From positions 4,901,501 through 4,965,500 of the forward strand of contig JAFFSR010000218.1 of assembly GCA_017163975.1 (NCBI GenBank): a stretch of DNA of 64,000 nt, in the 5' to 3' direction. Below are positions 1,947-63,893 of the stretch, in pieces. The notes under the pieces are model-generated. The model saw only the letters and a program-made list of their open reading frames with translations. It made no database searches and was not told the DNA's origin. Numbering within the stretch: position 1 is the first letter of the stretch; every line of letters begins with the position of its first letter. A program made the translations under genes and the position numbers. The DNA comes from Anastatus disparis (Eukaryota > Arthropoda > Insecta > Hymenoptera > Eupelmidae).

Positions 1947-4900
1947 TCGACTCTAAATAGTCGACTGCTTCATGATTTTATTTTAGTCAGTAATTACATA
2001 TCGAAAATTTAGTTTGTTGTCACACCAAATTTTAAAGTTTCAATATTTTTGTGACTCACTTACTATTTTTCTTGAGTAAATGAGCATCATAACATTAGTT
2101 TTTCAAAATTTAGGCAATATTTATTTCATTTGCCTTGCGAGAAACTAATAATGCTTAAAAGAAAGTCGACATTAAAAGTTGCAGTTTAAAAAAACGGTTC
2201 CATATTGTGAAATCAAATATCATATCGATAACGGGCAAAATTTTTGTACGTGTTGAGTTGGCAATGACACATTTATTATTCTCTTTTTCTTGATTTGACA
2301 TATTCAAACAAATTCTAAAATTGTTAGAAAAGTGACGATAAATACTCGTATTTTTATTTTGAATCATCAATCATTTCACATTAAAATATGATATTTTTAT
2401 CAATTCATACTAAATTTTGACTTTAAAATATTCGAATAAGTAAAGTCGACGTTAAATAGTCGCACTATCTACTTGTGGTATTTTTATCGGTAATTGATGT
2501 AAAATTTACTTTTACATTTTCAGGTAGCATATGTTTATGACTACATTTTTCAATTTCTGTAGTTTACAAATAGTAAAATCGCCTTTCCAACAACAGATAT
2601 TCATCATCACATGGTTATTCTTATCAAAATAGGCTTTGGAACTGTTGTAAAAGTATTAATACCTTTGTGTCAAAGCGAAAATCGGATTCGAGGCAAATCA
2701 TATTTGAAGTGAATTCCCTTGATTATTTCCCGACGTTAAATAGTCGTATAATTTCATCAGTTAAATATTAACTTTCATCCGTCGATAACAAATAAAATCA
2801 AATAATTAAAACTATCTTCTTATTGTTTCAGTGAATCCGTAATAAATATCGACGTTAAATAGTCGTAAACAGTATATCGAAAATAAGGCATATTCAATGT
2901 TAAATGAAGTGTATGAGAAAGTTCTTCACTTGAAAGTTAAGAGAAATGGATAAAGACGACGTTAAAGAGTCGCAACTTTAATGATTTGTGTCACCGAGCA
3001 TAATTCTGAAACATTTCATACGTTTTTTAAGTGTTAAAAATGGAATTTTAATATTATCCTTTGACATTTTCCGAAATTGTTGTTTGATAAGATATTATTA
3101 ATCAATTTATTAATGAATTTGTCAGAAAATTATTTCATCTAAAAAAGACGACGTTAAATAGTCGCAGCATCAATGATTTATGCTATTATGAATAGATGAT
3201 GAAACACTTCTTGTGTTTTTTAGATTATTTTCATTAATCGCGTCAAGAAAAAAAAGTCGCAGATTCAACTCAAAATATCGATTATTTCGCATTCAAGTAT
3301 AACATTTTATTGTCGTATCTGAATTTTGATTTCAAAACGAATAAATTTATTGTTCACGGATAAAAGACAATCCATAAGTATCGATAGACTTTTGAAATAG
3401 TTAATAATGATAAATTCTTAATGACTCTTTGTTTCATGTTTTCAAAAAACAATACTTTGTCACGTATCAAATCGGGGTCTTAATTATTTTTGAATGAAGA
3501 ATTATTTCTCATTTTGCATATGCTTTTCTTAGATAAATTTATGACTGATACTCTGAGAAGCACTGTAAAATTTTTATGTAAGTATTCATAATTAACGTAC
3601 TTAGGTAAAATCTGTCTTTACGAAAAGTCGACGTTAAATAGTCGTTGTATTAATGAAACTTGGTACTCTGCACAAATGATTTTCCTCATTCACAGCACTA
3701 AAAATTTTTTCTAACATTGTAAAGTCGCAAATTCAACTCATAATATCGAATGTTTCGCATTCAAGTATAGTTGGTTGTTGATGAGCAATCGTTCATACAA
3801 TGTTCGTTATTACTGAAATAAAAAATCAAGTCGGCGTTAAATAGTCGCATAATTCAATCAGTAATCTTCATCAGTATTGATGTAAAATTGAATTTTATAG
3901 TTTGTTGAGAATCGTTTTTAAAATATTAAGACCCAATTTTAAATATCTACTTTCTGATTGTCTATCAAAAACATTGCATTTGTAATGATTGTTTGAAAAA
4001 TCGACGTTAAATAGTCGTATTATCAACCTAATCTAATTCCATCTGAATCTAAAAGTCAAATTATGTATAAATTCAAAATATTTAGAGAGATGGTGCCATA
4101 AAAATCAAGTCTGTTAAACAGCTGCACATCTGAATCGAATTTCGACGTTAAATAGTCGAACGATCTAATCAATAATAAATTATTATTCTTATTATTGTGA
4201 AATTGATATTTGTGGCTCGGTGAAAACAGTTTAAAACTTTCTTGAACAAGATTAAAGGTAAGAAGTAACTTTATTTAGATCGATATATGAATTGGCGCAT
4301 TATTGTTACACTTTCATTTTTATTGGGCATCAAACTTTTGTTCAAGTGCATTCTCTAATTTTAAATCCATACCGTTGCTTTGATCATAAAGGTGATGAAT
4401 TTATTGAAAGATCATTTTTTAATTCAATATTTCATTGAATCATCATCTCAAGTTATTATCAAGCATATAACATTTATTAGGTTTCATGTATTTGTTTACC
4501 TTTAAATGGAAAGTCGGCGTTAAACAGTCGCAGTCTTTATTAAAATTCGCAATTATTGCAAATAAAAGTTTATGCTTTCGGTAACTCACTCGGAATAATC
4601 AAGAAACTGGTACTTTTGGAATTTACATCTAACTTTCTGTAACAACTTAGACGTAGATTTAATCAAATTATGAATCCTGCCAGAATACGATTTATTTTGG
4701 AACGAAATAATACCAAATTACTACACGCAAATTCACTTAAATATTTTAAGTAGAAATCGACGTTAAATAGTCGAGCATAATGTAATTGGAATTTAGAGAA
4801 CCTGGATACTAACGAAAAATCCTTTTAAAAATAGCAAAACATTATTAAATGCGAATCTCACGAATCTTTTACAAACATCGGAAATTAGTCAAATCGAATA

Positions 4901-7900
4901 TTCATTTGTTTCGTTTTTTGGATTTTACATATTTTTCTGATGAATTTACAGTTTCGCACGGGAAAAGTTAGGTGTCATTATCTTAATAAGACAATTTCTC
5001 CATTTGTTTTAACAAGAAACTAGCTTTTTTAGAAATACGACGCTAAATAGTCGTAACTTGAATGAGCTACTTTAATTTTTGCAGCTTTAATTAACAATAT
5101 TAATTATTAAGCATTAAGGTACTTCAATTTCACGCTTTTATACCTCGATCACGATAAAATAAATTTATAATTCTTTTTCGTGTTCCATCAATTTACTAGT
5201 AATTTAAATGTTAATGCGTCTTATTTCTCGTTAATGTTTAGTTAAATAATTACATTTTTAAGATATGAAATCAGTCAAATTTTTCAAGAAATCTGACCAT
5301 TTTGGCATAGTGTTATTATCTTTGTTAGCTTTCAATTGATACACTTTTAGAACTACAATAATACACAATTTTGCCAATGTGTTTGATTATAAGACAATAA
5401 AAAAATTTATTTTCAAAGACTTTTGAAAATGAAGGAAATCGTGAGCTTGTCAAATTATATATTCTTGGTTCTTGTTGTTGTCTCATGCTTTGACTTAAAT
5501 ATAATCAAGTTTTTAGAAACGAGTTTGTAAGAGAGTAGATTTGGCGTTAAATAGTCAAACAATTGGAGTTGCGAACTTGAGAAATATTTTTCAAAAAATC
5601 ACATCGAAAATAAGTCAAACAGATGAATAATAAGTAAATAAGTGACAAGTTGTTACAGAAGAATCGACGTTAAATAGTCGTAGCATCTAGTTTTTTAATC
5701 GGTCATCTCAGATCAAAGTCTATAAGTCCATTTCATTCTTTGATCTAAAATACATGCATTTTGTGGTTAAATTTTAAAAAATCACAATTAACATACTTTA
5801 GGATAAAATCAGGTTATCGATGACAAATGATTTTATTTATATCGGAAAACTTTAATATTTCTGTATAATTCAATGTCTTGGTTTTTGTATGATGAAAATT
5901 CGACGTTAAATAGTCGCGTTACATTTTTCATTTAAAATTTCAAAATTTCATGAAAGAGTATCTTCTTCGAAAAGGCAACTTTTATCTATATTCGGAAATA
6001 TCGGCACATTTTATTTAATATGTCTTTTTTTTATTGCTCTGGCTAATGTTTTACCGCAAATTTTATTTTATTAAATGGTCGACGTTAAATAGTCGCATTT
6101 TAATTCAATTATATAACTTATTACTTGGTTCAATATTTTTATTCGTTTTTAAGGTTTTTTGTTTTAAAATGAATACTGTTTTATTTAAAAAAAAATATTG
6201 ACGAATAAGTTCAAGTATAATAATGGGAATAATTTTTATTTACATATATTTTAAGGTATGAATTTCACAAATCCTTAGAATATACGCATGGAAAATCCAA
6301 TATTTATATTTAATTTCAGTCGTTTAATATTCTACAATAAATACATTTGTGGTTATATTTTAAAAAATGACAATGAACATATTTTAGGATAAAATCAGGT
6401 TATCGATGACAAATGATTTTATTTATATCGGAAAACTTTAATATTTCTGTATAATTCAATGTCTTGGTTTTTGTATGATGAAAATTCGACGTTAAATAGT
6501 CGCGTTACATTTTTCATTTAAAATTTCAAAATTTCATGAAAGAGTATCTTCTTCGAAAAGGCAACTTTTATCTATATACAATAAATACATTTGTGGTTAT
6601 ATTTTAAAAAATGACAATGAACATATTTTAGGATAAAATCAGGTTATCGATGACAAATGATTTTATTTATATCGGAAAACTTTAATACTTCTGTATAATT
6701 TAATGTCATAGTTTTTGTATGATGAAAATTCGACGTTAAATAGTCGCGTTACATTTTTTTTAAAATTTCAAAATTTCATGAAAGAGTATCTTCTTCGAAA
6801 AGGCAACTTTTATCTATATACAATAAATACATTTGTGGTTATATTTTAAAAAATGACAATGAACATATTTTAGGATAAAATCAGGTTATCGATGACAAAT
6901 GATTTTATTTATATCGGAAAACTTTAATATTTCTGTATAATTTAATGTCATAGTTTTTGTATGATGAAAATTCGACGTTAAATAGTCGCGTTACATTTTT
7001 CATTTAAAATTTCAAAATTTCATGAAAGAGTATCTTCTTCGAAAAGGCAACTTTTATCTATATACAATAAATACATTTGTGGTTATATTTTAAAAAATGA
7101 CAATGAACATATTTTAGGATAAAATCAGGTTATCGATGACAAATGATTTTATTTATATCGGAAAACTTTAATATTTCTGTATAATTTAATGTCATAGTTT
7201 TTGTATGATGAAAATTCGACGTTAAATAGTCGCGTTACATTTTTCATTTAAAATTTCAAAATTTCATGAAAGAGTATCTTCTTCGAAAAGGCAACTTTTA
7301 TCTATATTCGGAAATATCAGCACATTTTATTTAATATGTCTTTTTTTTATTGCTCTGGCTAATGTTTTACCGCAAATTTTATTTTATTAAATGGTCGACG
7401 TTAAATAGTCGCATTTTAATTCAATTATATAACTTATTACTTGGTTCAATATTTTTATTCGTTTTGAAGGTTTTTTGTTTTAAAATGAATACTGTTTTAT
7501 TTAAAAAAAAATATTGACGAATAAGTTCAAGTATAATAATGGGAATAATTTTTATTTACATATATTTTAAGGTATGAATTTCACAAATCCTTAGAATATA
7601 CGCATGGAAAATCCAATATTTATATTCAGTTTCTTGTCACACTAATCATTAATAGTTTATCATTTTCGAAGGAATTTTATAAGCTTAGATTTTGAAAATT
7701 CAGGCAATTTTTTTTATTTGCCTTACGTAGAAACTAATTTTCGGAAGAAGTAAGTCGACATTAAATAGTCGCATTTTCGAAAAGGGGGTCTATTATTGTG
7801 AAATAAATATTTCAATTATACATCAGCATATCGATAATAAGCAAATGTTGTATACATGTGAATGGACAATGGTAAATTTGTAATTGCTTATTGTAATTTT

Positions 7901-9680
7901 TATTCAATTTAAAAGAAAAACTTGTATTGTTAAAAATCTCATTTCTATAAACACCAAGTCGACGTTAAATAGTCGCAACTTGAATGAGCTTCTTAACTTT
8001 ATGCAGTTTCAATTAACGATGCTAGTTATTTTGCATTGAGGTACTTCAATTTCACATATATATCCTGATTATGATAAATAAATTTATCATTGTATCTTGT
8101 ATTTCATTAATTAAAACGTAATTTAAACGTAAATGCACATAGTTTCTCGTTCATGTTTAGTTAAATAATTAAATTATCCTGATTAATCTTGATGACTCTT
8201 TGAAGATACATCGACGTTAAATAGTCGAGCTTTTCAAGATATGAGTTTGGTTAACTTTTCACACAATCTAACAATTTTGGCATGATATTATTATCTTTGA
8301 TAACTTTGGATTGATGCACTTTTAGAGTTATGACGATAAAAAATTTCGCCAATGTATTTTATTATATCCACATAAAAATCGTGAATTTGTCAAATTAAAT
8401 TTTCATTGTTCTTGTTTTTTATATTTCTTCTGACTTGATAATTTTATTTTGAAGCAAAATCGACGCTAAATAGTCGAATGTTTCGAGACTTGAATATAAT
8501 AAAGTTTTGAGAAAAGATAAATAGGAAACGTTTTAATTTGAACACACGCAATTATTGAGTTGGCGTTAAATAGCCAAATATTTGGAATTGTCAATTTCAC
8601 GGGTCTTCATAAAAACGACATCGAAAATCTGTCAAACTGATAAATATCATTTGATTATCGATATTTTGCTTCAGAAAAATCGACGTTAAAAGTCGAAACT
8701 TTTAAGATTTCAATGTAATTAGATCATTGTATAAATAATTGGAAACGCGTCGATTTGCATATATGTTAATACTGATGTGAATTCGGCCGATCATTTGGAG
8801 TTGTCAAATTCATGAATCTTTCCAAAAAAAACCACATAGAAGGGAAGTCTTACTGAAATACTGAATAATATACTTGAAAAAAACGACGATAGATAGTCGA
8901 ATATTTCAAGACATGAATTTATTGTTTGGCGTTACCAAATCTTGAGTACTAAATAAATAAAACTGATTGTCTAAATTTGTACTTAAACTACATAATATGA
9001 CTTCTATGAAGATAAGACAGTATCCCTTTATTTGAATTATCAAGAAACAAGTGTTTCAATAACCATATCGACAAAGGTGTCGTCTTTTATTTATGTCCAT
9101 TGTATTTGACACACATTTTATATTTGTTTGGTAATCAGTCGAGCTAATTAAAAAAAAATCGACGTTAAATAGTCGAAGCTTCCATTTTTTAATCTGATTA
9201 TTTTATACCAAATCCTAATATTTTATTTTAATCTTAGTGTGAATTAAAATAAATTTGCTTGTAGTTGAATTTAAAAAAATTACAATCAACATATCTTAAC
9301 ATACAATCATGTCATCAATGACAAACAATTGTATTTATGTCGGAAAAATTTAATATTTCTACATAAATCAAGATCATAGTGGTTACGCCTTAACTTGAGA
9401 TTCCAGTGCAATATATTCTGACGATAAAAAATTGACGTTAAATAGTCGCAAATTTTTTCATCGCCTATGACTTATCATTCATTATTCTATTTTATAAAAA
9501 TAACACTTGTTTGATTAATTAATTTAAATAATCGAATAGTGTACTGATTTTTTATGACGAAAAAGAAGTCATTGTTAAAAATCAACGTAATCGAACTGCA
9601 GTCAATCTCAGAAATAATTAATTATTAATTTTATTTTAATGTTCATGCTTATATGAGAATCGACGTTAAATAGTCGAATC
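1947..9680 (+). repeat. Hairpin-motif array A (32 hand-counted copies)
   Basis: The core motif is TCGAC-GTTAAATA-GTCGA, a 4-6 bp stem with an 8-nt loop. Hand-read left-arm starts: 1947, 2446, 2730, 2849, 2956, 3148, 3628, 3831, 4001, 4142, 4514, 4757, 5037, 5540, 5664, 5900, 6079, 6486, 6730, 6972, 7216, 7395, 7755, 7959, 8211, 8460, 8560, 8680, 8883, 9159, 9433, 9660. All are in plus orientation and the spacers are AT-rich. Arm variants keep pairing: TTGGC/GCCAA at 8560 and TTTGGC/GTCAAA at 5540 (one G.U). A degenerate copy at about 2164 and a shortened TTTGG/CCAAA copy near 8932 were not counted. Confidence 0.93.
5860..7620 (+). repeat. Recent tandem amplification inside array A
   Basis: Two kinds of unit alternate here. 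Type a contains GAAAATTCGACG (5900, 6486, 6730, 6972, 7216). Type b contains AATGGTCGACG (6079, 7395). The order is a-b-a-a-a-a-b, with a period of about 242-245 bp in the a-a run. The repeats are almost identical, so the expansion is recent. The homologous stretch of D has the order a-b-a-b-a-b. Confidence 0.92.
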
Positions 9681-9904
9681 GTATACCGATTGTTTATGAC
9701 AAAAACGAATTAATTGTTTATAATTAATCTGATCGAACCGCACATGAAAATTGCATTCGCCGATTTGTCAGAAGAGCATTAACAAATGCTGTGAAATGAA
9801 ACTGTACGAATATTTTCAATTCAAATTTGTATTTTCATTTCGATGTGATTGATTAATGTATATGTATATTTGTGTAAATAGATTTTTGTAATACAATATA
9901 TATT

Positions 9905-9940
9905 TATAAAATAAATAAAAATTATTTAACAATAAACAAA
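9905..9940 (+). terminator. Polyadenylation signals of unit A
   Basis: Overlapping AATAAA hexamers lie at 9910-9915 and 9914-9919, with another at 9931-9936, followed by a T-rich tract after ACATGTTTCACC. The same arrangement follows the arrays of C (42,676) and D (54,114), and hairpins stop before it each time. This supports a common 3' end. Confidence 0.65.
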
Positions 9941-11385
9941 ACATGTTTCACCTTTACCCAAATATCATTTTCCTAAAAAGATAAATTGAAATTTTGATTA
10001 GGGCATCAAAAATCCTTATTTGTTTTGAAAAACCAACCATAGTTTTAAATAAACTTTTACATTAATTTTTACAATACTAAATAATGAAAAAATATCATGA
10101 GAATGTTCATATTTTGTCTTATAAAAATAAATTCATATTAATAAACTGATGAAAAAAATTCATACTGTGCTTCAATTTTTATTTTATAAAGTCAAAATGG
10201 ATTCATTTTTTTATATTTTTTATTCATGAAATAGTATTAAAACAACAAAAGAAAAGAGTTCAAAATATATTAATCAAATGAAATTTTTTTAAAAAATAAA
10301 GAAAAATTGCATTTGAACTTTTTACATATTTATTGAAAAAATTTAACATTCAAGATTTTTTTTTTATCATTCAATGATTAATATAGATTGTTACAGTAAT
10401 CGTTGACATAATATCAAGCTTTAAGAACGAGCTTCATAAAATTTTTTCATTTTATATGATAGATGAAAATCAAACTTGTAAGGATAGTGTTTCTCTTTCG
10501 GTTCACCGATTTTGCTCAGATTTTGTATTCTGGATCTAAAATTATGAAGAAATTCAAAATTTCAAGCCTTAATCCTCAATATTTCCCTAATTACAGGCAA
10601 TCACAGAAAGTTACTAAAAAGTTACTAGTTAGTATTATTTTCGAATGTTTTTGAGAAGCGTTAGCATTAATAGCTAACGCTTAAAACTTTTTTAAAATTA
10701 AAGTTGAGCTTAAATTCATTCGAAATAGTAGTTACAGCATATAAAAATATTACTTTTTTTTCTAATTACAGCATAATAAAGATTATCTTAATTCAGAGAT
10801 TTCCTTTAAATTTCATATTAACCAAGAAAGTATGTATCTAGTGGTAGAAAGACTATACCAGTTTTAATTGATATGAATCGCAGTCACGATTAAATATTCT
10901 TGAATTATATTTTGAAAGAAGTGTATAGAAATATAATTGTAATAATCTTAGCTTGATTCGGCGTAGTAGATATAGGGCGAGTACAGTCAGACGATAAAAT
11001 AAATACACTTGGTTTGATATTTTAATTAGAGAAATCTTTATTTGATACTTTGAATAATATTTTATAATAGACTGAATATGGTTATTACGTAATCTCTATA
11101 GTGAGGATAATTGCATAGCGCCAATAATTTAAAGTGCTGAGAAATTCTGTATAGTCGTATCTTTTTGAGTGATTTTTAAAGTGTGAGGATGATCCCGTTC
11201 TTCATCAGTATTTATAGTAATTATTCATATTTATTATTAAATTATTAAGATTTCTTTAAATTGACACATAAAATTTATTAGTAAGTATTTTTACAGAGTT
11301 TTATAATTTTGTTCGTATAATCGTTACTATTGACCAATACTAATTTTAAATTTCTTTTACTGTTCTATTTTTTTTGTTTAGCTTA
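9941..11385. other. AT-rich flank downstream of unit A
   Basis: No convincing gene. A 63-codon open frame at 10,463-10,654 is duplicated in the D copy only because the DNA is. A 10 bp perfect stem with a 7-nt ATTAATA loop lies at 10,656-10,682. No array hairpins occur here. The stretch ends exactly at the left end of the DNA transposon. Confidence 0.55.
10656..10682. other. Perfect 10 bp hairpin
   Basis: AAGCGTTAGC and GCTAACGCTT enclose the loop ATTAATA. An identical copy lies at 55,937-55,963 in the duplicate. It resembles the array hairpins only in being short and AT-looped; stem and loop differ. Role unknown. Confidence 0.6.
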
Positions 11386-16362: not shown

Positions 16363-16423
<61 letters not shown>

Positions 16424-23056: not shown

Positions 23057-23057
23057 A

Positions 23058-23470: not shown

Positions 23471-23730
23471 ATAATCTTCTGATTTATTTGGGTAAGACTT
23501 TTCGGATTTTGATTGTATTATATATATATTCAGCTACTTACCGTTAAGCTAAAGTTTAAGAATTTGTTTTCTTTGAAAGGTAGGAGGGGTACATTCAGGT
23601 AGATCAATTTTACCTAATACTTTGATATTTAATTTATTGACCATGGATTCAATTTCTCCATAACGGATTAGTAAGAATCCAGGTAAATAAAATTTGGAGT
23701 ATATAAGGGCATGAAAAATGCAACTTTAGG
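23470..23730 (+). promoter_or_regulatory. TATA promoter of unit B
   Basis: TATATAAG at 23,700-23,707 follows the conserved block (TTCGGATTTTGATTGTATTA, then GGATTAGTAAGAATCCAGG, AATTTGGAG). It is more diverged from A, C and D than they are from each other. The start is expected near 23,730. Confidence 0.72.
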
Positions 23731-27100: not shown

Positions 27101-27295
27101 TGTTTGGAAAATCGACGTTAAATAGTCGAATCGTTAATCCAATCCAATGATATCTGAATCCTAAAGTCAAACTGCTAATAAATTTCATCATAAAAATGGT
27201 AATTTTTCTTATTAGTTTTATACGAGAATTGAATTACTGAAAAGAGCGATCACAATTTTTTAGTTTAAAATTTACCGGCAAGAATTGCTTGGATA

Positions 27296-42275: not shown

Positions 42276-42675
42276 CATTTTTTTCATCATCGTTAATGTA
42301 TTTTATCATAATAACTATATTTTTAATAATTTATTGAAATAATCGAGTTATATATAAAGATTATTCATGATCAGAACAGATTTATTGCATTTGAATAATT
42401 CATACTCATCTGAGAATCGATTTTAAATAATTGCATTTATTAAGTCAGATTTCAAATAACCAATTGTTGCATATTATAAGTCGCTTTTCAGATTTGAGAA
42501 TATAATTATTTTCGTCAGTTGGTTAGAGTACCACTTTTAAATACTGTTAAATAATAATGTATGGATGTTTTCAATAAAAATTTGTATTTTCATTTCGATA
42601 AATATATGTAATTTATATTTAATAAATATATGTAATTTTGTATAAATATTTTTGTGATTCAATATATAATTATAA

Positions 42676-42710
42676 AATAAATAAAATGATTTAAAAATAA
42701 ACAAAATATG
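42676..42710 (+). terminator. Polyadenylation signals of unit C
   Basis: AATAAA at 42,676-42,681 and again a few bases on, in the same setting as 9,910 and 54,114 (TATAAAATAAATAAA, then ATGTTTCACCTTTA). Confidence 0.65.
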
Positions 42711-42719
42711 TTTCACCTT

Positions 42720-45424: not shown

Positions 45425-45665
45425 AAATGGTTCGGATTTTAATGGTATTATAGCCAACTTTTATCCCTCATGCTATCAGTTTATGAATTCGACTTATTTT
45501 AAATGAAAGTGGAGTAACTATATTTTAATAGTCAATTCATTTAATGAAGGTAGGGTACCATGGCCAATTCAATGACCATGCACTTTGTTCCTTCAAAATG
45601 GATTAGTAAAGACTCAGGTATACAAAATTTGGAGTATATAAGGCGTCGAAAATGCAAGTTGAAAT
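45425..45665 (+). promoter_or_regulatory. TATA promoter of unit D
   Basis: TATATAAG at 45,635-45,642, identical in context to unit A. Confidence 0.75.
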
Positions 45666-46361: not shown

Positions 46362-49300
46362 TCGACGCTAAATAGTCGACTGCTTCATGATTTTATTTTA
46401 GTCAGTAATTACATATCGAAAATATAGTTTGTTGTCACACCAAATTTTAAAGTTTCAATATTTTTGTGACTCACTTACTATTTTTCTTGAGTAATATAAT
46501 ATTTATTTCATTTGCCTTACGAGAAACTAATGCTTGAAAGAAAGTCGACATTAAAAGTTGCAGTTTAAAAAAACGGTCCCACATTGTGAAATCAAATATC
46601 ATATCGATAACGGGCAAAATTTTTATACGTGTTGAGTTGGCAATGACACATTTATTATTCTCTTTTTCTTGATTTGACATATTCAAACAAATTCTAAAAT
46701 TGTTAGAAAAGTGACGATAAATACTCGTATTTTTATTTTGAATCATCAATCATTTCACATTAAAATATGATATTTTTATCAATTCATACTAAATTTTGAC
46801 TTTAAAATATTCGAATAAGTAAAGTCGACGTTAAATAGTCGCACTATCTACTTGTGGTATTTTTATCGGTAATTGATGTAAAATTTACTTTTACATTTTC
46901 AGGTAGCATATATTTATGACTACGTTTTTCAATATCTGTAGATTACAAATAGTAAAATCGCCTTTCCACCTACAGATATTCATCATCACATGGTTATTCA
47001 AAATAGCCTTTGGAACTGTTGTAAAAGTATTAATACCTTTGTGTTAAAGCAAAAAACGGATTCGAGGCAAATCATATTTGAAGTGAATTCCCTTGATTAT
47101 TTCCCGACGTTAAATAGTCGTATAATTTCATCAGTTAAATATTAACTTTCATCCGTCGATAACAAATAAAATCAAATAATTAAAACTATCTTCTTATTGT
47201 CTCAGTGAATCCGTAATAAATATCGACGTTAAATAGTCGTAAACAGTATATCGAAAATAAGGCATATTCAATGTTAAATGAAGTGTATGAGAAATGGATA
47301 AAGACGACGTTAAAGAGTCGCAACTTTAATGATTTGTGTCACCGAGCATAATTCTGAAACATTTCATACGTTTTTTAAGTGTTAAAAATGGAATTTTAAT
47401 ATTATCCTTTGACATTTTCCGAAATTGTTGTTTGATAAGATATTATTAATCAATTTATTAATGAATTTGTCAGAAAATTATTTCATCTAAAAAAGACGAC
47501 GTTAAATAGTCGCAGCATCAATGATTTATGCTATTATGAATAGATGATGAAACACTTCTTGTGTTTTTTAGATTATTTTCATTAATCGCGTCAAGAAAAA
47601 AAAGTCGCAGATTGAACTCAAAATATCGATTATTTCGCATTCAAGTATAACATTTTATTGTCGTATCTGAATTTTGATTTCAAAACGAATAAATTTATTG
47701 TTCACTGATAAAAGACAATCCATAAGTATCGATAGACTTTTGAAATAGTTAATAATGATAAATTCTTAATGACTCTTTGTTTCATGTTTTCAAAAAACAA
47801 TACTTTGTCACGTATCAAATCGGGGTCTTAATTATTTTTGAATGAAGAATTATTTCTCATTTTGCATATGCTTTTCTTAGATAAATTTATGACTGATACT
47901 CTGAGAAGCACTGTAAAATTTTTATGTAAGTATTCATAATTAACGTACTTAGGTAAAATCTGTCTTTACGAAAAGTCGACGTTAAATAGTCGTTGTATTA
48001 ATGAAACTTGGTACTCTGCACAAATGATTTTCCTCATTCACAGCACTAAAAATTTTTTCTAACATTGTAAAGTCGCAAATTCAACTCATAATATCGAATG
48101 TTTCGCATTCAAGTATAGTTGGTTGTTGATGAGCAATCGTATATACATTGTTCATTATTACTGAAATGAAAAAGTCAAGTCGGCGTTAAATAGTCGCATA
48201 ATTCAATCAGTAATTTTTGTCCGTATTGATGTAAAATTGAATTTTATAGTTTGTTGAGAATCGTTTTTAAAATATTAAGACCCAATTTTAAATATCTACT
48301 TTCTGATTGTCTATCAAAAACATTGCATTTGTAATGATTGTTTGAAAAATCGACGTTAAATAGTCGTATTATCAATCTAATCTAATTCCATCTGAATCTA
48401 AAAGTCAAATTATGTATAAATTCAAAATATTTAGAGAGACGGTGCCATAAAAATCAAGTCTGTTAAACAGCTGCACATCTTAATCGAATTTCGACGTTAA
48501 ATAGTCGAACGATCTGATCAATAATACATTATTATTGTTATTATTGTGAAATTGATATTTGTGACTCGGTGAAAACAGTTTAAAACTTTCTTGAACAAGA
48601 TTAAAGGTAAGAAGTAACTTTATTTAGATCGATATATGAATTGGCGCATTATTGTTACACTTTCATTTTTATTGGGCATCAAACTTTTGTTCAAGTGCAT
48701 TCTCTAATTTTAAATCCATACCGTTGCTTTGATCAATAAAAGGTGATGAATTTATTGAAAGATCATTTTTTAATTCAATATTTCATTGAATCATCATCTC
48801 AAGTTATTATCAAGCATATAACATTTATTAGGTTTCATGTATTTGTTTACCTTTAAATGGAAAGTCGACGTTAAACAGTCGCAGTCTTTATTAAAATTCG
48901 CAATTATTGCAAATAAAAGTTTATGCTTTCGGTAACTCACTCGGAATAATCAAGAAACTGGTACTTTTGGAATTTACGTCTAACTTTCTGTAACAACTTA
49001 GACGTAGATTTAATCAAATTATGAATCCTGCCAGAATACGATTTATTTTGGAACGAAATAATACTAAATTACCACACGTAAATTCACTTAAATACTTTAA
49101 GTAGAAATCGACGCTAAATAGTCGAGCATAATGAGATTGGAATTTAGAGAATCTGGATACTAATGAAAAATCCTTTTAAAAATAGCAAAACATTATTAAA
49201 TGCGAATCTCACGAATCTTTTACAAACATCGAAAATTAGTCAAATCGAATATTCATTTGTTTCGTTTTTTGGATTTTACATATTTTTCTGATGAATTTAC

Positions 49301-52300
49301 AGTTTCGCACTGGAAAAGTTAGGTGTCATTATCTTAATAAGACAATTTCTCCATTTGTTTTAACAAGAAACTAGCTTTTTTAGAAATACGACGCTAAATA
49401 GTCGTAACTTGAACGAGCTACTTTAATTTTTGCAGCTTTAATTAACAATATTAATTATTGAGCATTAAGGTACTTCAATTTCACGCTTTTATACCTCGAT
49501 CACGATAAAATAAATTTATAATTCTTTTTCGTGTTCCATCAATTTACTAGTAATTTAAATGTTAATGCGTCTTATTTCTCGTTAATGTTTAGTTAAATAA
49601 TTACATTTTTAAGATATGAAATCAGTCAAGTTTTTCAAGAAATCTGACCGCTTTGGCATATTATTATCTTTGTTAGTTTTTAATTTATACACTTTTAGAG
49701 CTATGATAATACACAATTTTGCCAATGTGTTTCATAATAAGACAATAAAAAAATTTATTTTTAAAGACTTTTGAAAATGAAGGAAATCGTGAGCTTGTCA
49801 AATTATATATTCTTGGTTCTTGTTGTTGTCTCATGCTTTGACTTAAATATAATCAAGTTTTTAGAAACGAGTTTGTAAGAGAGTAGATTTGACGTTAAAT
49901 AGTCAAACAATTGGAGTTGTGAACTTGAGAAATATTATTTAAAAAATCACATAGAAAATAAGTCAAGCAGATGAATAATAAGTAAATAAGTGACAAGTTG
50001 TTACAGAAGAATCGACGTTAAATAGTCGTAGCATCTAGTTTTTAAATCGGTCATCTCAGATCAAAGTCTATAAGTCCATTTTATTCTTTGATCTAAAATA
50101 CATGCATTTTGTGGTTAAATTTTAAAAAATCACAATTAACATACTTTAGGATAAAATCAGGTTATCGATGACAAATGATTTTATTTATATCGGAAAACTT
50201 TAATATTTCTGTATAATTCAATGTCTTGGTTTTTGTATGATGAAAATTCGACGTTAAATAGTCGCGTTACATTTTTCATTTAAAATTTCAAAATTTCATG
50301 AAAGAGTATCTTCTTCGAAAAGGCAACTTTTATCTATATTCGGAAATATCGGCACATTTTATTTAATATGTCTTTTTTTTATTGCTCTGGCTAATGTTTT
50401 ACCGCAAATTTTATTTTATTAAATGGTCGACGTTAAATAGTCGCATTTTAATTCAATTATATAACTTATTACTTGGTTCAATATTTTTATTCGTTTTTAA
50501 GGTTTTTTGTTTTAAAATGAATACTGTTTTATTTAAAAAAAAATATTGACGAATAAGTTCAAGTATAATAATGGGAATAATTTTTATTTACATATATTTT
50601 AAGGTATGAATTTCACAAATCCTTAGAATATACGCATGGAAAATCCAATATTTATATTTAATTTCAGTCGTTTAATATTCTACAATAAATACATTTGTGG
50701 TTATATTTTAAAAAATGACAATGAACATATTTTAGGATAAAATCAGGTTATCGATGACAAATGATTTTATTTATATCGGAAAACTTTAATATTTCTGTAT
50801 AATTCAATGTCTTGGTTTTTGTATGATGAAAATTCGACGTTAAATAGTCGCGTTACATTTTTCATTTAAAATTTCAAAATTTCATGAAAGAGTATCTTCT
50901 TCGAAAAGGCAACTTTTATCTATATTCGGAAATATCGGCACATTTTATTTAATATGTCTTTTTTTTATTGCTCTGGCTAATGTTTTACCGCAAATTTTAT
51001 TTTATTAAATGGTCGACGTTAAATAGTCGCATTTTAATTCAATTATATAACTTATTACTTGGTTCAATATTTTTATTCGTTTTTAAGGTTTTTTGTTTTA
51101 AAATGAATACTGTTTTATTTAAAAAAAAATATTGACGAATAAGTTCAAGTATAATAATGGGAATAATTTTTATTTACATATATTTTAAGGTATGAATTTC
51201 ACAAATCCTTAGAATATACGCATGGAAAATCCAATATTTATATTTAATTTCAGTCGTTTAATATTCTACAATAAATACATTTGTGGTTATATTTTAAAAA
51301 ATGACAATGAACATATTTTAGGATAAAATCAGGTTATCGATGACAAATGATTTTATTTATATCGGAAAACTTTAATATTTCTGTATAATTTAATGTCATA
51401 GTTTTTGTATGATGAAAATTCGACGTTAAATAGTCGCGTTACATTTTTCATTTAAAATTTCAAAATTTCATGAAAGAGTATCTTCTTCGAAAAGGCAACT
51501 TTTATCTATATTCGGAAATATCAGCACATTTTATTTAATATGTCTTTTTTTTATTGCTCTGGCTAATGTTTTACCGCAAATTTTATTTTATTAAATGGTC
51601 GACGTTAAATAGTCGCATTTTAATTCAATTATATAACTTATTACTTGGTTCAATATTTTTATTCGTTTTGAAGGTTTTTTGTTTTAAAATGAATACTGTT
51701 TTATTTAAAAAAAAATATTGACGAATAAGTTCAAGTATAATAATGGGAATAATTTTTATTTACATATATTTTAAGGTATGCATTTCACAAATCCTTAGAA
51801 TATACGCATGGAAAATCCAATATTTATATTCAGTTTCTTGTCACACTAATCATTAATAGTTTATCATTTTCGAAGGAATTTTACAAGCTTAGATTTTGAA
51901 AATTCAGGCAATTTTTTTTATTTGCCTTACGTAGAAACTAATTTTCGGAAGAAGTAAGTCGACATTAAATAGTCGCATTTTCGAAAAGGGGGTCTATTAT
52001 TGTGAAATAAATATTTCAATTATACATCAGCATATCGATAATAAGCAAATGTTGTATACATGTGAATGGACAATGGTAAATTTGTAATTGCTTATTGTAA
52101 TTTTTATTCAATTTAAAAGAAAAACTTGTATTGTTAAAAATCTCATTTCTATAAACACCAAGTCGACGTTAAATAGTCGCAACTTGAATGAGCTTCTTAA
52201 CTTTATGCAGTTTCAATTAACGATGCTAATTATTTTGCATTGAGGTACTTCAATTTCACATATATATCCTGATTATGATAAATAAATTTATCATTGTATC

Positions 52301-53885
52301 TTGTATTTCATTAATTAAAACGTAATTTAAACGTAAATGCACATAGTTTCTCGTTCATGTTTAGTTAAATAATTAAATTATCCTGATTAATCTTGATGAC
52401 TCTTTGAAGATACATCGACGTTAAATAGTCGAGCTTTTCAAGATATGAGTTTGGTTAACTTTTCACACAATCTAACAATTTTGGCATGATATTATTATCT
52501 TTGATAACTTTGGATTGATGCACTTTTAGAGTTATGACGATAAAAAATTTCGCCAATGTATTTTATTATATCCGCATAAAAATCGTGAATTTGTCAAATT
52601 AAATTTTTATTGTTCTTGTTTTTTATATTTCTTCTGACTTGATAATTTTATTTTGAAGAAAAATCGACGCTAAATAGTCGAATGTTTCGAGACTTGAATA
52701 TAATAAAGTTTTGAGAAAAGATAAATAGGAAACGTTTTAATTTGAACACACGCAATTATTGAGTTGGCGTTAAATAGCCAAATATTTGGAATTGTCAATT
52801 TCACGGGTCTTCATAAAAACGACATCGAAAATCTGTCAAACTGATAAATATCATTTGATTATCGATATTTTGCTTCAGAAAAATCGACGTTAAAAGTCGA
52901 AACTTTTAAGATTTCAATGTAATTAGATCATTGTATAAATAATTGGAAACGCGTCGATTTGCATATATGTTAATACTGATGTGAATTCGGCCGATCATTT
53001 GGAGTTGTCAAATTCATGAATCTTTCCAAAAAAAACCACATAGAAGGGAAGTCTTACTGAAATACTGAATAATATACTTGAAAAAAACGACGATAGATAG
53101 TCGAATATTTCAAGACATGAATTTATTGTTTGGCGTTACCAAATCTTGAGTACTAAATAAATAAAACTGATTGTCTAAATTTGTACTTAAACTACACAAT
53201 ATGACTTCTATGAAGATAAGACAGTATCCCTTTATTTGAATTATCAAGAAACAAGTGTTTCAATAACCATATCGACAAAGGTGTCGTCTTTTATTTATGT
53301 CCATTGTATTTGACACACATTTTATATTTGTTTGGTAATCAGTCAAGCTAATTAAAAAAAAATCGACGTTAAATAGTCGAAGCTTCCATTTTTTAATCTG
53401 ATTATTTTATACCAAATCCTAATATTTTATTTTAATCTTAGTGTGAATTAAAATAAATTTGCTTGTAGTTGAATTTAAAAAAATTACAATCAACATATCT
53501 TAACATACAATCATGTCATCAATGACAAACAATTGTATTTATGTCGGAAAAATTTAATATTTCTACATAAATCAAGATCATAGTGGTTACGCCTTAACTT
53601 GAGATTCCAGTGCAATATATTCTGACGATAAAAAATTGACGTTAAATAGTCGCAAATTTTTTCATCGCCTATGACTTATCATTCATTATTCTATTTTATA
53701 AAAATAACACTTGTTTGATTAATTAATTTAAATAATCGAATAGTGTACTGATTTTTTATGACGAAAAAGAAGTCATTGTTAAAAATCAACGTAATCGAAC
53801 TGCAGTCAATCTCAGAAATAATTAATTATTAATTTTATTTTAATGTTCATGCTTATATGAGAATCGACGTTAAATAGTCGAATCG
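46362..53885 (+). repeat. Hairpin-motif array D (31 hand-counted copies)
   Basis: Hand-read starts: 46362, 46825, 47104, 47223, 47304, 47496, 47976, 48180, 48350, 48491, 48865, 49108, 49388, 49888, 50012, 50248, 50427, 50834, 51013, 51420, 51599, 51959, 52163, 52415, 52664, 52764, 52884, 53097, 53363, 53637, 53864. The fully compensated TTGGC/GCCAA stem of unit A is kept at 52764. The first hairpin here is TCGACGCTAAATAGTCGA, where A has a changed loop (TCTAAATA). Confidence 0.93.
50200..51830 (+). repeat. Three-fold 585 bp amplification inside array D
   Basis: Pairs of hairpins (50248/50427, 50834/51013, 51420/51599) repeat with a period of about 586 bp and near-identical spacers. A has the same two unit types in a different order and number. 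Confidence 0.92.
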
Positions 53886-54113
53886 TATACCGATTGTTTA
53901 TGACAAAAACGAATTAATTGTTTATAATTAATCTGATCGAACCGCACATGAAAATTGCATTCGCCGATTTGTCAGAAGAGCATTAACAAATGCTGTGAAA
54001 TGAAACTGTACGAATATTTTCAATTCAAATTTGTATTTTCATTTCGATGTGATTGATTAATGTATATGTATATTTGTGTAAATAGATTTTTGTAATACAA
54101 TATATATTTATAA

Positions 54114-54145
54114 AATAAATAAAAATTATTTAACAATAAACAAAA
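54114..54145 (+). terminator. Polyadenylation signals of unit D
   Basis: AATAAA at 54,114-54,119 and just beyond, same setting as unit A. Confidence 0.65.
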
Positions 54146-54319
54146 CATGTTTCACCTTTACCCAAATATCATTTTCCTAAAAAGATAAATTGAAATTTTG
54201 ATTAGGGCATCAAAAATCCTTATTTGTTTTGAAAAACCAACCATAGTTTTAAATAAACTTTTACATTAATTTTTACAATACTAAATAATGAAAAAATATC
54301 ATGAGAATGTTCATAATAT

Positions 54320-57168: not shown

Positions 57169-57170
57169 TA

Positions 57171-59149: not shown

Positions 59150-59380
59150 AATCCTCCGCTTCATTTGGGTAAAATGGTTCGGATTTTAACTGTATTAAAT
59201 CCAACTTTTATCTCTTATGTTATCAGTTTATAAATTCGACTTATTTGAAATAAAGGTGGGAGTGCCAATATTATAATAGCCAATTCATTAACCATGCATT
59301 TAGTTTCTTTAAAAAGAATTAGTAAGGACTAAGGTGGATTAAATTTGGAGTATATAAGGCACCGAAAATGCAAGTTGAAA
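59150..59380 (+). promoter_or_regulatory. TATA promoter of unit E
   Basis: TATATAAG at 59,351-59,358. Upstream blocks (ATGGTTCGGATTTTAACTG, CCAACTTTTATCTCTTATG, AAATTCGACTTATTT) match those of A, C and D with some divergence. Confidence 0.75.
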
Positions 59381-60037: not shown

Positions 60038-63000
60038 TCGACGTTAAATAGTCGATAATTTCAAGATTTTATTTTGGTTTTGAAGACCGAAGATCTACGT
60101 AGCCAAAGAATTGTGGATAATCGAAATAATTTTCATTTCAATCGTATATATTTCAAAGTACAAAACGCACAATTCATTAGAAGTTACGTATCGAAAATTA
60201 AATATTTGCATTCAGTTCATTGTTACATCAAACGTTATAATTTCATTGTCTTTTGGTGAGTACTAAATTTGTCTTTCTACGTTCTTTGCCTAACTTTATA
60301 ACATCAGTTTGGCCAACATTCAAGCAATGCTTTTTTATTTGCCTTACGTAGGAGCTAGTGCTTGAAAGAAAGTCGACATTAAATAGTCGCATAATGTAGT
60401 TATGTTATTTTCATCGATCAACGGCGTAAAATTTACTTTTAAATGAGAATGAAAATATTTGATTGAATTGAAGTCAAAATTTTAAATGTTTGTGATGGCG
60501 AACAGTAGTATCACTTTCTCAGTAGCAGATATTCATTATCAAATGGATAATCTCATCGAAATGAAATCGAATATCAAATTTGAAAAATTCAAATTTAAAA
60601 TGTTTCGGTGAAAAATTGACGTTAAATAGTCGTTTAACTTTATAGGTGGCAAATTTTAACAAAGCAACCTATAAATAGTCTTTCGTTAGACTTTTAAATC
60701 AATTATAAATTTTGTTTGTATTTTCTTTGATTTTTTTTTAAAAGAACGATGATTCATCAAAATAATTTTAATACCAAATTACCGTTGGAAAACAGTTTTT
60801 TTTAACTATTATCGTATATGTTGGCAAACTCCTACATAAATAACCAATACGTTAGCTCCGATTGTTTTAGTTTTTCTATTACGTGCAATGTATATTCTCG
60901 ATGATAAGTCGACGATAAATAGTCGCATAATACTTTTTTATTATCTTTGATGTAAGATATATTCTTCTATTTGACCAAAATACCATTTGTTTGAATAAGT
61001 ATTATACCGACAAAGTATTTTTTCACTAAATGGTTATTCCCATTCAAATTCGTATCTATTGGCACACTAAAACATACGTTATCGTTATTATTACTATTAG
61101 CACACTAAAACATATATTATCATTACTATTTCTTATGTTTTATGTCCGTAAAGTGCGTGTTTACGAAAATTTGACGTTAAATAGTCGAACCATCGAAATT
61201 ATCATGGACCAAAATATAATGAATGATTGCAATATCAGTTCTTCAAAAATCGACGTTAAATAGTCGTATTTTCAATCTGACTTACTCATATTTACAACTG
61301 TCGCTTATGATCAAATAAGTTCATTAATTTTTATTATCAGAAGATAAATTTTTCAATTCTTTTTTATATTTTTTAATAGAAACATTGTCACTTCAAAAAT
61401 ATTCAGTTATATAGTGATGAAGTCAATAATGAGATTCATTATCATATTATAAAAAAATGTTATTTTCGCCGAAATAACATTTATTGTTATAAGCTTCTAA
61501 AGCAAAATGATAAGCGAAAAGTAATTTTGTTGACATCGGTACATAGGCACATTATTGTATATTTTCATCATGTAAAAGAGGAGTCTTTATTTTGAACTTG
61601 CTACATTTGTATGGAAAAAATTCGACGGTAAATAGTCGTAGCCTCTATTAGTAGTCTCACTTATGGCAAATAAATATTTAATATATTGACATCGATTTTA
61701 ACTGTCACATTATTGTTAGATTTTGTTCAAAATAAGATTCTTTAATTTGAAAGATTCTTTTACTTTAACGAACTGCTGGCACGTTTCTATGAAGAAGTTA
61801 TTTCTGAAAAGAAAATAGACGTTAAATAGTCGTAGCCTCTATTAGTAGTCTCACTTATGGCAAATAAATATTCAATATATTGACATCGATTTTAACTGTC
61901 ACATTATTGTTAAATTTTGTTCAAAATAAGATTCTTTAATTTGAAAGATTCTTTTACTTTAAAGAACTGCTGGCACGTTTCTATGAAGAAGTTATTTCTG
62001 AAAAGAAAATAGACGTTAAATAGTCGTAGCTTCTATCAACCGCCTCAATTATTAAAATTTTCATTTTGCACATGACTTCACTATGAGTAAAATTAAATGA
62101 TGAATTGACATATTCCTATGGATATATGGATCAAGACAATCTTTTTAAATTTATATCTGAAATTTCGGTAACAATTCAGACCCAGTTTTAATTGACAAAT
62201 ATATTTGTTGTTTATTCTAAAATGTAAACAAAATATCACATTATATAAAAACGTCATTTTTACCAAAATAACGTTTAGTTATTAAACTATTAAGAAGGAA
62301 TAGGTGAAGTAACTTTATGTACATCGATACGAATTGGCACATTATTGTTACATTTTACGGGTATTAATTGATTTTAGCAAATTCTCTAATTTGAAATCTA
62401 TTTCGTTCTTCTTTTGATTAATACAGGCAATGAAATTATTGAAAGTTTATATTTTAATTCAATATTTCATTAAAGAATATTATTAAATATTCAACAATTA
62501 TTATATTTCATGTATTCGTTTATTTTCGGATACAAAGTCGAAGTTGAATAGTCGCAATCTGATGATTCTTTTACAAATATCGAGTTTTGGTCGAACTGAA
62601 TATATGTTTGATTGTTTTATTTTTTTTTGACATCATGTTTTCTGATAGTAAATTGGTCTCATAAATTTTCAGTTTGGCACTGGAAGTAGCTTCGTGGCAT
62701 TAATAAAATAGCTTCTTTGCTTGTTTTATCAAGAAACTAGTTATTTTAAGAAAATCGACGTTAAATAGTCGAAAGTTGAATGAACTACTTGAATCTTTGG
62801 AGCTTCAATTAACAAAATTAGTCATTTTGCATTGACGTTGTTCAACTTCACGCTGATTTTGATGAATTAAATTTATCATTCTATTTTGCGCTTTACTAAT
62901 TTACGCGTCATTAAAACGCAAATATATATTATTTCTAGTTCATGTTTAGTTAAATAATTAAAAATATGAGATTAAACTTGATGGATCTTTGAAGATATAT

Positions 63001-63893
63001 CGATGTTAAATAGTCGAACATTTCAAGATTTCAGTATTATTGTCTTTGATAAAAAAAAGCTGTTTTTAAAAGCTCCCAAAGATAAAGAAAATCGTGAGCT
63101 TGTCAAATTGAATATTCTTTATTTTTTTCTAAAATATCAATACATATATTTACGATATTTGACAAAATCGACGTTAAATAGTCGAATATTTCAAAACATG
63201 AATTTTTTGGTTTGGTTTTAAATAGCCAAAAATTCAGTATTCACATAAACATTATTAAGTTTGTAAGTGAAGGCCAGTTTTCATTATTTATTTCTGAACA
63301 ACTTTATCGCATTAGTTCCTACAGAAGTAATATAAGTTAATATTTATTTTTGGATTTTATTGAGAAACTAATCCTTTTAAGAAAGACGACGTTAAATAGT
63401 CGCAGCTTTCGATTCGACCATTTCAGATCAAAGTCTAATATTTCATTTTATTCATTCAATGTACTACAATAAATGCATTTGTGGTTACATTTGAAAAAAT
63501 TAAATTTCACATATTTTAGAATAAAATCAGGTTATCCGTGACAAATGATTTTATTTATATCGAAAAACTTTAATATTTCTGTATAATTTAATACCATGGT
63601 CTTTGTGTGATGAAAATTCGACGTTAAATAGTCGAATAATATTGATATAATTTTGAAACAAAATCGACGGTAAATAGTCGAATGTTTTGAGATTTAAATA
63701 TACTCAAGTTTTTAGAAATGAGTGAGTAAAAGTATATTTAAGTAAAAGTAGATTTGGCGTTAAATAGTCAAACAATTGGAGTTGTGAATTTCAGAAATTT
63801 TCATTAAAACACCAGATCGAAAATAGGTCAAACAGATGAATAATAAGTAATGAATGATATGTTGTTACAGAAGTATCGACGTTAAATAGTCGT
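60038..63893 (+). repeat. Hairpin-motif array E (18 hand-counted copies to the edge)
   Basis: Hand-read starts: 60038, 60373, 60617, 60909, 61172, 61250, 61622, 61816, 62010, 62538, 62755, 63000, 63168, 63386, 63618, 63664, 63754, 63876. The TTTGGC/GTCAAA form (one G.U) recurs at 63,753, equivalent to A 5540. CGAT/GTCG (U.G) occurs at 63000. Loop variants include GGTAAATA (61622, 63664) and GATAAATA (60909). Confidence 0.92.
61638..62025 (+). repeat. Two 194 bp tandem copies, one hairpin each
   Basis: 61,638-61,831 and 61,832-62,025 differ at only a few bases. The period is exactly one hairpin plus its spacer, which shows directly that the array grows by duplicating hairpin-spacer units. Confidence 0.95.

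What the first reader, a model, noticed from the sequence alone, without database searches (positions are those of the whole stretch)
1947..63893. About 149 copies of one small RNA hairpin in five tandem plus-strand arrays
Seen: TCGAC-GTTAAATA-GTCGA and variants, every 100-400 bp, always in the same orientation, downstream of five related promoters and absent between units. The loop is the best-conserved part and the spacers are far more variable. Inference: the units make long noncoding RNAs that present tens of copies of a protein- or RNA-binding hairpin, in the way roX or Xist repeats act as multivalent scaffolds. No known family recognised.
Basis: partly seen in the sequence, partly recalled or inferred. 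Interest (0 to 1): 0.96.

Follow-up and report, generated by a model that had tools for sequence, protein, structure and literature searches.

The report
Noncoding RNA arrays of conserved hairpins
An arthropod genome carries clusters of probable noncoding RNA genes, each repeating the same tiny RNA hairpin dozens of times, and mutations in the hairpin stem are often matched by a repairing mutation on the other side, which indicates that the folded RNA itself is what evolution keeps.

Summary
In detail: 149 copies of GACGTTAAATAGTCG (at most 3 mismatches) on the plus strand, 0 on the minus, in five arrays. A covariance model finds 157 at E<0.01, all plus. The hairpin is RNA and looks selected. 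In the window, stem cells changed to G.U number 24, to A.C 0. Genome-wide, for one stem pair, the doubly changed A-U form occurs 82 times, G.U 46, A.C 3, against reversed-pattern controls of 1, 0 and 3. Between recognised paralogous copies stems differ by 3.9%, loops 2.7%, spacers 14.3%. The exact 15-mer occurs 712 times in the 939-Mb genome (control 14). All 20 stretches fetched because they held hits carry near-consensus copies on one strand only. Three diverged leader families with TATA boxes and splice-like signals read into arrays. New detail: a closing pair, direct or behind a one-base bulge. No Rfam match, plus-strand roXbox or long ORF was found. Best reading: a dispersed family of Pol II noncoding RNAs displaying tens of copies of one protein-binding hairpin. 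Transcription, partner and function are untested; the host is an unidentified arthropod.

The parts
1217..1227 (+). Unit 1 TATA box, preceded by CAGGTA at 1200; predicted exon 1 to 1334, intron 1335-1536, exon 2 1537-1631, intron 1632-1923
   Evidence: TATA box, first 5' and 3' splice-like sites and second 5' site conserved in all five units; the last 3' site only in units 1, 3 and 4; read from sequence, not from RNA
1949..9662 (+). Array 1, 32 hairpins; contains a local 244-bp x4 expansion (6333-7307)
   Evidence: aligned parts 97-99.7% identical to unit 4
9784..10020 (+). Conserved 3' end of unit 1 with AATAAA-type signals
   Evidence: 77% identical to 42539-42785; near-identical to 53988-54224
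23697..23707 (+). Unit 2 TATA box and leader (5' splice-like site at 23801, 3' site ending 24023)
24414..34105 (+). Array 2, 38 hairpins (coordinates are the first bases of the first and last hairpin)
34604..34614 (+). Unit 3 TATA box and leader
35328..42444 (+). Array 3, 30 hairpins to 42259 plus a degraded one at 42411-42444
42539..42785 (+). Conserved 3' end of unit 3
45632..45642 (+). Unit 4 TATA box and leader
46364..53866 (+). Array 4, 31 hairpins
53988..54224 (+). Conserved 3' end of unit 4
59348..59358 (+). Unit 5 TATA box and leader
60040..64000 (+). Array 5, 18 hairpins in the window; hairpins continue on the same strand into the next stretch (L026), which also holds a further leader
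37393..37426 (+). Example of a compensated hairpin: CAAC-GTTAAATA-GTTG where the aligned copy at 29429 has CGAC-GTTAAATA-GTCG
8554..8587 (+). Example of a hairpin with changed stem pairs that still pair: TTGGC-GTTAAATA-GCCAA

Best explanation
The five arrays are members of a dispersed gene family of long noncoding RNAs made by RNA polymerase II. Each transcript starts at a TATA promoter, is spliced near its 5' end and carries about 30 copies of one small hairpin: a 4-bp stem, the loop GUUAAAUA, and below the stem a closing pair that is either direct or set off by one bulged nucleotide. Shown by computation: the pattern of changes is that of a plus-strand RNA fold kept by selection. Inferred: one sequence- and structure-specific RNA-binding protein reads the loop and stem; the loosely spaced copies (median 233 nt) act as independent docking sites that load tens of molecules on one RNA; and the spacers are linkers. 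The RNA then works as a multivalent scaffold or assembly platform, in the general manner of roX stem-loops or architectural RNAs. Transcription, the partner and the biological process are unknown.
For: (1) Strand-specific covariation. Window: of 596 stem cells 589 pair; G.U 24, A.C 0, other mismatch 7; full 4-bp stem in 142 of 149 copies. Each of the 4 pairs has changes on both sides and 0 of 500 shuffles reach any of the five measures. 20 further stretches plus the window: single-change copies G.U 88, A.C 13, transversion mismatch 22 of 123; of 109 two-change copies 80 are Watson-Crick compensated in the same pair, 15.6 expected in the same pair by placement alone (non-redundant: 48, 8, 13 of 69; 42 of 59, 8.4 expected). 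Genome-wide for one pair: A-U 82 (control 1), G.U 46 (control 0), A.C 3 (control 3); these are copies, not independent events. (2) Constraint: stems 10/256 and loops 7/256 vs spacers 948/6628 between paralogues, p 1e-7 and 1e-9 (see evidence against). (3) The same hairpin follows three diverged leader families that share a TATA core promoter and splice-like signals. (4) The stem forms in native 220-nt context with mean probability 0.81 vs 0.63 with letter-shuffled flanks, p 1.3e-4. (5) No ORF of 100 aa in arrays.
Against: No RNA data: transcription and splicing are predictions. No binding partner identified. The paralogue comparison counts only pairs in which both copies are still recognisable (at most 3 mismatches), which lowers hairpin divergence; where only one copy is recognised, one search shows more differences (for example 9 of 29 positions in one pair). 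The flanks are not significantly less diverged than spacers: A-tract 18/147, closing positions 14/125, 3' flank 34/308, so the recognised element may be no more than stem and loop. In the extended set 89 of 637 detected copies have 3-4 stem changes and only 15 of these still pair; they were left out of the one- and two-change counts. 13 single-change copies are A.C. A crude word count found no second shared motif in 50 non-redundant of 141 spacers. No leader was found in six of the 20 fetched stretches (L032, L033, L038, L039, L042, L045).
Confidence: 0.6

Rival explanations
1. Decoy: the RNAs are sponges that titrate a hairpin-binding protein (or a small RNP) away from its real targets, so only total site number matters.
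For: Very high copy number (712 exact sites); irregular spacing; no second shared motif in spacers by a crude test; precedent for multivalent RNAs recruiting many copies of one protein (PMC6224606, start of abstract seen in the listing).
Against: Nothing here separates it cleanly from a scaffold; constraint on leader and promoter architecture in three families fits both.
Confidence: 0.2
2. piRNA or other small-RNA precursor loci, with the hairpin as a processing or licensing signal along the transcript.
For: Clustered, dispersed, fast-evolving loci; a Piwi-clade gene (PAZ and Piwi domains in two adjacent ORFs) lies 3.7 kb upstream of one array promoter on the same contig.
Against: The transposon content of spacers was not tested. 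A 4-bp stem is far too short for Dicer or Drosha (recalled). One neighbouring gene may be coincidence.
Confidence: 0.1
3. RNA-RNA assembly: loops contact each other (UUAA, loop positions 2-5, is self-complementary) or a complementary RNA, and the arrays condense by loop-loop contacts rather than by a protein.
For: The loop is nearly invariant among copies detected with at most one loop mismatch and predicted open (mean unpaired probability 0.89).
Against: Loop position 2, needed for a UUAA contact, is the most variable (T in 237 of 260), while positions 6 and 8, outside such a contact, are A in 255 and 259 of 260.
Confidence: 0.04
4. A DNA element: a palindromic site for a DNA-binding protein, insulator or recombinase, with orientation inherited by tandem duplication.
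For: Dyad symmetry; arrays grew by duplication.
Against: The G.U vs A.C asymmetry (24:0, 88:13, 46:3) has no meaning for duplex DNA, and stems change letters while staying complementary.
Confidence: 0.02
5. Neutral satellite or mobile repeat whose hairpin is a by-product.
For: Segmental duplication of units (aligned parts up to 99.7% identical) and local tandem expansion (244-bp x4 in the window; copies about 161 bases apart on C193). No transposon library was available to compare with.
Against: Recognised hairpins are about four times less diverged than their spacers (17/512 vs 948/6628), spacing is irregular, and compensated double changes make up 80 of 109 two-change copies.
Confidence: 0.04

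Closest known systems
roX1/roX2 RNAs of Drosophila (roXbox stem-loops)
   Same: Noncoding RNA with repeated small stem-loops as the best recognisable feature; in roX1 the number of stem-loops correlates with X occupancy and rescue (PMC4719309, passages read)
   Different: The roXbox GUUNUACG is absent from the window's plus strand; here there are 18-38 copies per unit in the window and many units; no link to an X chromosome or to MSL/MLE could be tested
Xist A-repeat and other tandem modules of Xist
   Same: Multivalent protein docking by repeated RNA modules (PMC8786293, start of abstract seen in the listing)
   Different: No Rfam match; a single gene in mammals vs a dispersed multigene family; different motif
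Short-tandem-repeat architectural or decoy RNAs (PNCTR; hsr-omega recalled)
   Same: Long noncoding RNA with many binding sites for one protein (PMC6224606, start of abstract seen in the listing)
   Different: Sites here are structured hairpins spaced by sequence that is mostly not simple repeat
Iron-responsive element and MS2-type operator hairpins (recalled)
   Same: Short stem, specific loop, one bulged nucleotide below the upper stem
   Different: Different loop; IREs occur singly or a few per mRNA, natural MS2 sites singly (recalled)

Membership tests
roX RNA family | roXbox motif GUUNUACG in stem-loops | tested here: not met
   0 on the plus strand and 2 on the minus strand of the window
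roX RNA family | Repeated stem-loops in a noncoding transcript | tested here: inconclusive
   Repeated stem-loops met; transcript not observed
roX RNA family | X-linked origin, MLE/MSL binding, X coating | not testable with these tools
   Contigs are unnamed and no RNA or sex data are held
Any curated RNA family of Rfam 15 | Match to a covariance model | tested here: not met
   0 at gathering score in the window; 0 at E<=1 for 1200-10200
microRNA precursor | Stem of about 20 bp or more (recalled) | tested here: not met
   4-bp stem plus one closing pair
Multivalent (scaffold or architectural) lncRNA | Many copies of one conserved site on one strand, no coding | tested here: met
Multivalent (scaffold or architectural) lncRNA | Selection for the site as RNA | tested here: met
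Multivalent (scaffold or architectural) lncRNA | Transcribed, binds a defined protein, nucleates a complex | not testable with these tools
   No RNA or binding data
Classic satellite DNA | Regular head-to-tail units of uniform length | tested here: not met
   Spacing 92-500 bases (5-95%); the only long-period tandem arrays holding hairpins that Tandem Repeats Finder reports are 6333-7307 and 61624-62036. On C193, outside the window, copies do recur about every 161 bases
piRNA cluster | Transposon-fragment content and small RNAs | not tested
   Spacer content was not compared with transposons; no small-RNA data

The most novel reading that the evidence does not exclude
A lineage-specific chromosome-wide regulator: a multigene family of early-zygotic hairpin-array RNAs that loads one RNA-binding protein onto chromatin (dosage compensation, sex determination or genome defence), evolved independently of roX and Xist and dispersed over several contigs so that each locus could act as an entry site. 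The shared CAGGTA-TATA core promoter resembles the TAGteam sites of the early activator Zelda, which fits only if the host is pancrustacean.
Probability: 0.1. Interest if true: 0.95.

Novelty: new variant of a known kind. Interest (0 to 1): 0.82.

Why it matters
Repeat-scaffold RNAs are usually recognised only after transcription and function are known, and few show clean evidence that the repeated fold itself is selected (my judgement). Here several hundred copies in one genome act as a natural mutagenesis experiment: they give a recognition rule (stem pairing free in letter, loop UUAAAUA nearly fixed, bulge or direct closing pair) and a ready probe for the binding protein. If such RNAs work on chromatin or as a protein store, this would be an independent origin of a roX/Xist-like design at a scale (many loci, about 30 sites per unit) that I did not meet in the listings of my paper searches (three of these show only the top 8-15 of several hundred papers).

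Tried and rejected
Rfam at gathering score on the window and at E<=1 on unit 1: nothing. tRNA scan: none. Viral collection, exact 15-mer: 17 stretches, one match each, no arrays, taken as chance. A protein-coding reading: no ORF of 100 aa in the arrays, and longest open stretches 61-99 codons against shuffle means of 71-82 and maxima of 116-140; a short ORF in exon 2 of units 1, 3 and 4 loses frame in units 2 and 5 (read). A second motif: words of 6-8 bases in 50 non-redundant of 141 spacers (9,934 bases); the top excess over a Markov expectation is z 2.5, and larger excesses over single-base expectation come partly from local palindromes; not a motif finder, so weak motifs may be missed. Conserved A-tract as part of the site: not supported between paralogues. 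Exons more conserved than introns in the leader: only slight and not uniform.

Host as spider: suggested (4 relatives, two named: 38% to Oedothorax gibbosus, 29% to Larinioides sclopetarius), weakened (one relative, annotated to a Wolbachia of an isopod, 38%) and (Spidroin_N 0, but no control genome rang either, so this is weak). The nearby Piwi ORFs score best with Siwi among solved structures (that Siwi is from silkworm is recalled), which leans to insects but decides nothing. An insect odorant-receptor family search did not complete. A scan of bacterial and archaeal genomes for the 500-aa protein confirmed no relative among 8 pattern matches. The transposon piece gave 35 relatives, none with a name.

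Not obtained: genome-wide promoter count, X-linkage test, full map of the cluster on contig C216. For the exact 15-mer only 100 of 712 places were listed, so contigs that sort after C216 are known only from the rarer stem variants.

Full report
OBSERVATION. The 15-mer GACGTTAAATAGTCG is present 95 times exactly and 149 times with at most three mismatches on the plus strand; both counts are 0 on the minus strand, and with four mismatches they are 166 and 11. The copies form five arrays with 32, 38, 30, 31 and 18 members, the last running off the window. Spacing is irregular (median 233 bases; 5-95% range 92-500; 145 intervals under 1500 bases). Of 127 plus-strand GTTAAATA octamers inside arrays, 115 are flanked by a complementary stem of at least 3 bp; of 4 outside arrays on plus and 8 on minus, none is. 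A covariance model built from 68 non-redundant copies returns 157 hits at E<0.01, all plus; the best three minus-strand hits (E 0.034-0.035) overlay plus-strand hairpins.

IT IS AN RNA STRUCTURE. In the window the 4-bp stem forms in 142 of 149 copies. Of 596 stem cells 589 pair; G.U cells number 24, A.C cells 0 and other mismatches 7 when read on the plus strand (68 non-redundant copies: G.U 12, A.C 0). All four pairs have changes on both sides, and no shuffle of 500 reached the observed values. I fetched 20 more stretches of the same genome from six contigs, chosen because pattern searches had shown hits there, and detected copies in these and the window, allowing one loop mismatch and four stem changes: 637 copies, of which 89 with 3-4 stem changes are mostly unpaired (15 of 89 pair) and were left out of what follows. 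Single-change copies: 88 G.U, 13 A.C, 22 transversion mismatches, of 123. Two-change copies: 80 of 109 are Watson-Crick compensated within the same pair, where random placement would put 15.6 in the same pair. Non-redundant: 48, 8, 13 of 69, and 42 of 59 (8.4 expected). For one pair (G-C) the whole 939-Mb genome was counted: the doubly changed A-U form 82 times (reversed-pattern control 1), the G.U form 46 times (control 0), the A.C form 3 times (control 3, so background). These are copies, many related by duplication (22 of the 82 lie on the 40-kb contig C193), not independent events. Duplex DNA cannot tell G.U from A.C in this way.

SELECTION. In 11 aligned pairs of paralogous stretches, stems differ at 10 of 256 positions, loops at 7 of 256 and spacers at 948 of 6628 (Fisher p 1e-7 and 1e-9). 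Limits: the pairs share some stretches, and only positions where both copies are still recognisable were counted, which lowers the hairpin figure. Flanks are not significantly less diverged than spacers: A-rich 5' flank 18 of 147, closing positions 14 of 125, 3' flank 34 of 308. Direct compensatory events between aligned copies are seen: 29429 vs 37401 (G-C to A-T) and 30359 vs 41104 (C-G to T-A). In 220-nt native context the stem has mean probability 0.81, against 0.63 when the flanks are shuffled by single letters.

Below the four pairs there is often a fifth. Either the base at -2, mostly U, pairs with the base after the stem (24 of 68), or the base at -3 does, leaving one bulged nucleotide, mostly U (34 of 68); 10 have neither. 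The sum, 58 of 68, exceeds a permutation mean of 46.4, and 0 of 10,000 shuffles were as high; over all stretches 203 of 260 against 168, 0 of 5,000. Among 260 non-redundant copies with at most two stem changes, loop positions 3, 5, 6 and 8 keep the consensus in 256, 259, 255 and 259; detection allowed one loop mismatch only, so loop conservation is partly by construction. The best consensus is a short stem with an optional bulge and a UUAAAUA loop, the size of a protein-recognition hairpin.

GENE ANATOMY. All five units share a promoter and leader: TATA box GAGTATATAAG, a first exon, a 5' splice-like site (GAAGTAAGT), a 3' site (TTTTGCAG), a second exon with a further 5' site, and the array starting 692-732 bases from the TATA box. 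Units 1, 3 and 4 share a 3' end with AATAAA-type signals. Leaders were found upstream of arrays and in the same direction in 19 cases in all: family A, the five in the window plus L026, L027, L028, L030, L031 and L034; family B, L029, L040, L041 and L044; family C, L035, L036, L037 and L043. No leader was found in the fetched part of L032, L033, L038, L039, L042 and L045. In 16 of the 19 a shared core, AGGT(A/G) followed by a TATA box about 26 bases on, could be found by pattern, 12 of them with CAGGTA exactly next to the TATA box by my reading of the rows; two further matches of the pattern lie outside leaders. L036 was cut before its promoter; L026 and L030 did not match. The leaders are related, so these are not independent. 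Zelda binds CAGGTAG and variants, and no Zelda was found in chelicerates (PMC5515446, passages read); I treat the resemblance as a lead only. Transcription and splicing are inferred, not observed.

GENOMIC SETTING. The window is contig C216:4901501-4965500 of a 939,413,245-base assembly of 399 contigs. The exact 15-mer occurs 470 times forward and 242 reverse, against 8 and 6 for the reversed pattern; only 100 of these places were listed. With the fully listed rarer variants the hairpins seen lie on C11, C135, C193, C216, C225 and C263, with single places on C275 and C323. On C216 the compensated variant runs from about 4.89 to 5.59 Mb, and a further array lies near 2.00 Mb. In all 20 fetched stretches (L045 has a single copy) and the window, copies with at most two stem changes lie on one strand only; matches with 3-4 stem changes on the other strand number 17 in 10 of the stretches and 2 in the window. 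Arrays spread by duplication: C135 holds two inverted copies aligned at 92-94%, and C193 resembles a C263 array at up to 97%.

HOST. Unknown arthropod. The uninterrupted ORFs at 18054-19616 and 20916-22421 have five relatives at 29-38%, two of them in spiders, one annotated to a Wolbachia of an isopod and two unnamed. Spidroin_N gave 0 in the genome, with no positive control. Piwi ORFs near one array are closest to Siwi among solved structures.

MECHANISM. Shown: many copies of an RNA fold, kept by selection, in promoter-sense orientation. Inferred: Pol II transcripts that load tens of copies of one hairpin-binding protein. Scaffold and decoy cannot be separated here; the lack of a second motif in spacers (a crude test) is a mild point for decoy or homotypic assembly. 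A small-RNA precursor role is possible and was not tested. A DNA-site role and a neutral satellite are contradicted by the asymmetry and the constraint.

COMPARISON. It works like roX or other multivalent RNAs in design, but I do not file it as roX: the roXbox is missing from the window's plus strand and other defining features could not be tested. No curated RNA family matches. Passages of PMC9912274 state that the basis of dosage compensation in spiders is unknown; this matters only if the host is a spider, which my evidence does not support well. Passages of PMC7127994 and PMC4719309 were also read. Paper searches for a described system of this kind showed none in their listings (one search lists 15 of 868, 10 of 385, 8 of 753); apart from the passages named I saw only titles and abstract starts, and most subscription-journal papers are not held.

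Noticed in passing
L044:954-1964 and 1984-3111 (C216:5440001-5450000): Adjacent ORFs with PAZ (8.8e-36) and Piwi (2.4e-86) domains, closest to Siwi among solved structures, 3.7 kb upstream of a hairpin-array promoter.
   Followed up: partly
window 18054-19616 and 20916-22421, minus strand: Two paralogous uninterrupted ORFs of about 500 aa with no Pfam match; relatives at 29-38% in two spiders and in a protein annotated to a Wolbachia of the isopod Cylisticus convexus, plus two unnamed. Possible lateral transfer or host contamination of that assembly; the bacterial and archaeal genome scan confirmed no relative.
   Followed up: partly
window 11386-14865: Likely DNA transposon with terminal inverted repeats of about 450 bp at 91% identity and broken ORFs; the duplication shared with the unit 4 region ends at its border.
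   Followed up: no
window 54316-55389: About 1.07 kb present in the unit 4 copy and absent from the 99.7% identical unit 1 copy, with a 3-bp overlap at the junction, as left by a recent insertion.
   Followed up: no
window 1200-1227 and leaders of families A, B, C: CAGGTA-like site at nearly fixed distance from the TATA box in 16 of 19 leaders; CAGGTA is commoner on the array strand (35) than its complement (17) in the 240,500 bases examined.
   Followed up: partly
L035, L037, L043 and L029, L040, L041, L044, exon 1: First exons of leader families B and C hold palindromic stretches of the type (GAG)AAC...GTT(CTC), clearest in L035 and partly lost in others; a possible second hairpin.
   Followed up: no
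window 855-917 and 45270-45332: Inverted motif around CCAACCGTTGG upstream of units 1, 3 and 4, not seen in units 2 and 5; resembles paired Myb sites (recalled).
   Followed up: no
window 27294-27823: A near-palindromic repeat with many AAGTACGTACTT-like units between hairpins of array 2.
   Followed up: no
L042:2-733, minus strand: Piece of a type-B DNA polymerase (PF03175, 1.1e-8), probably of a large mobile element, beside an array.
   Followed up: no
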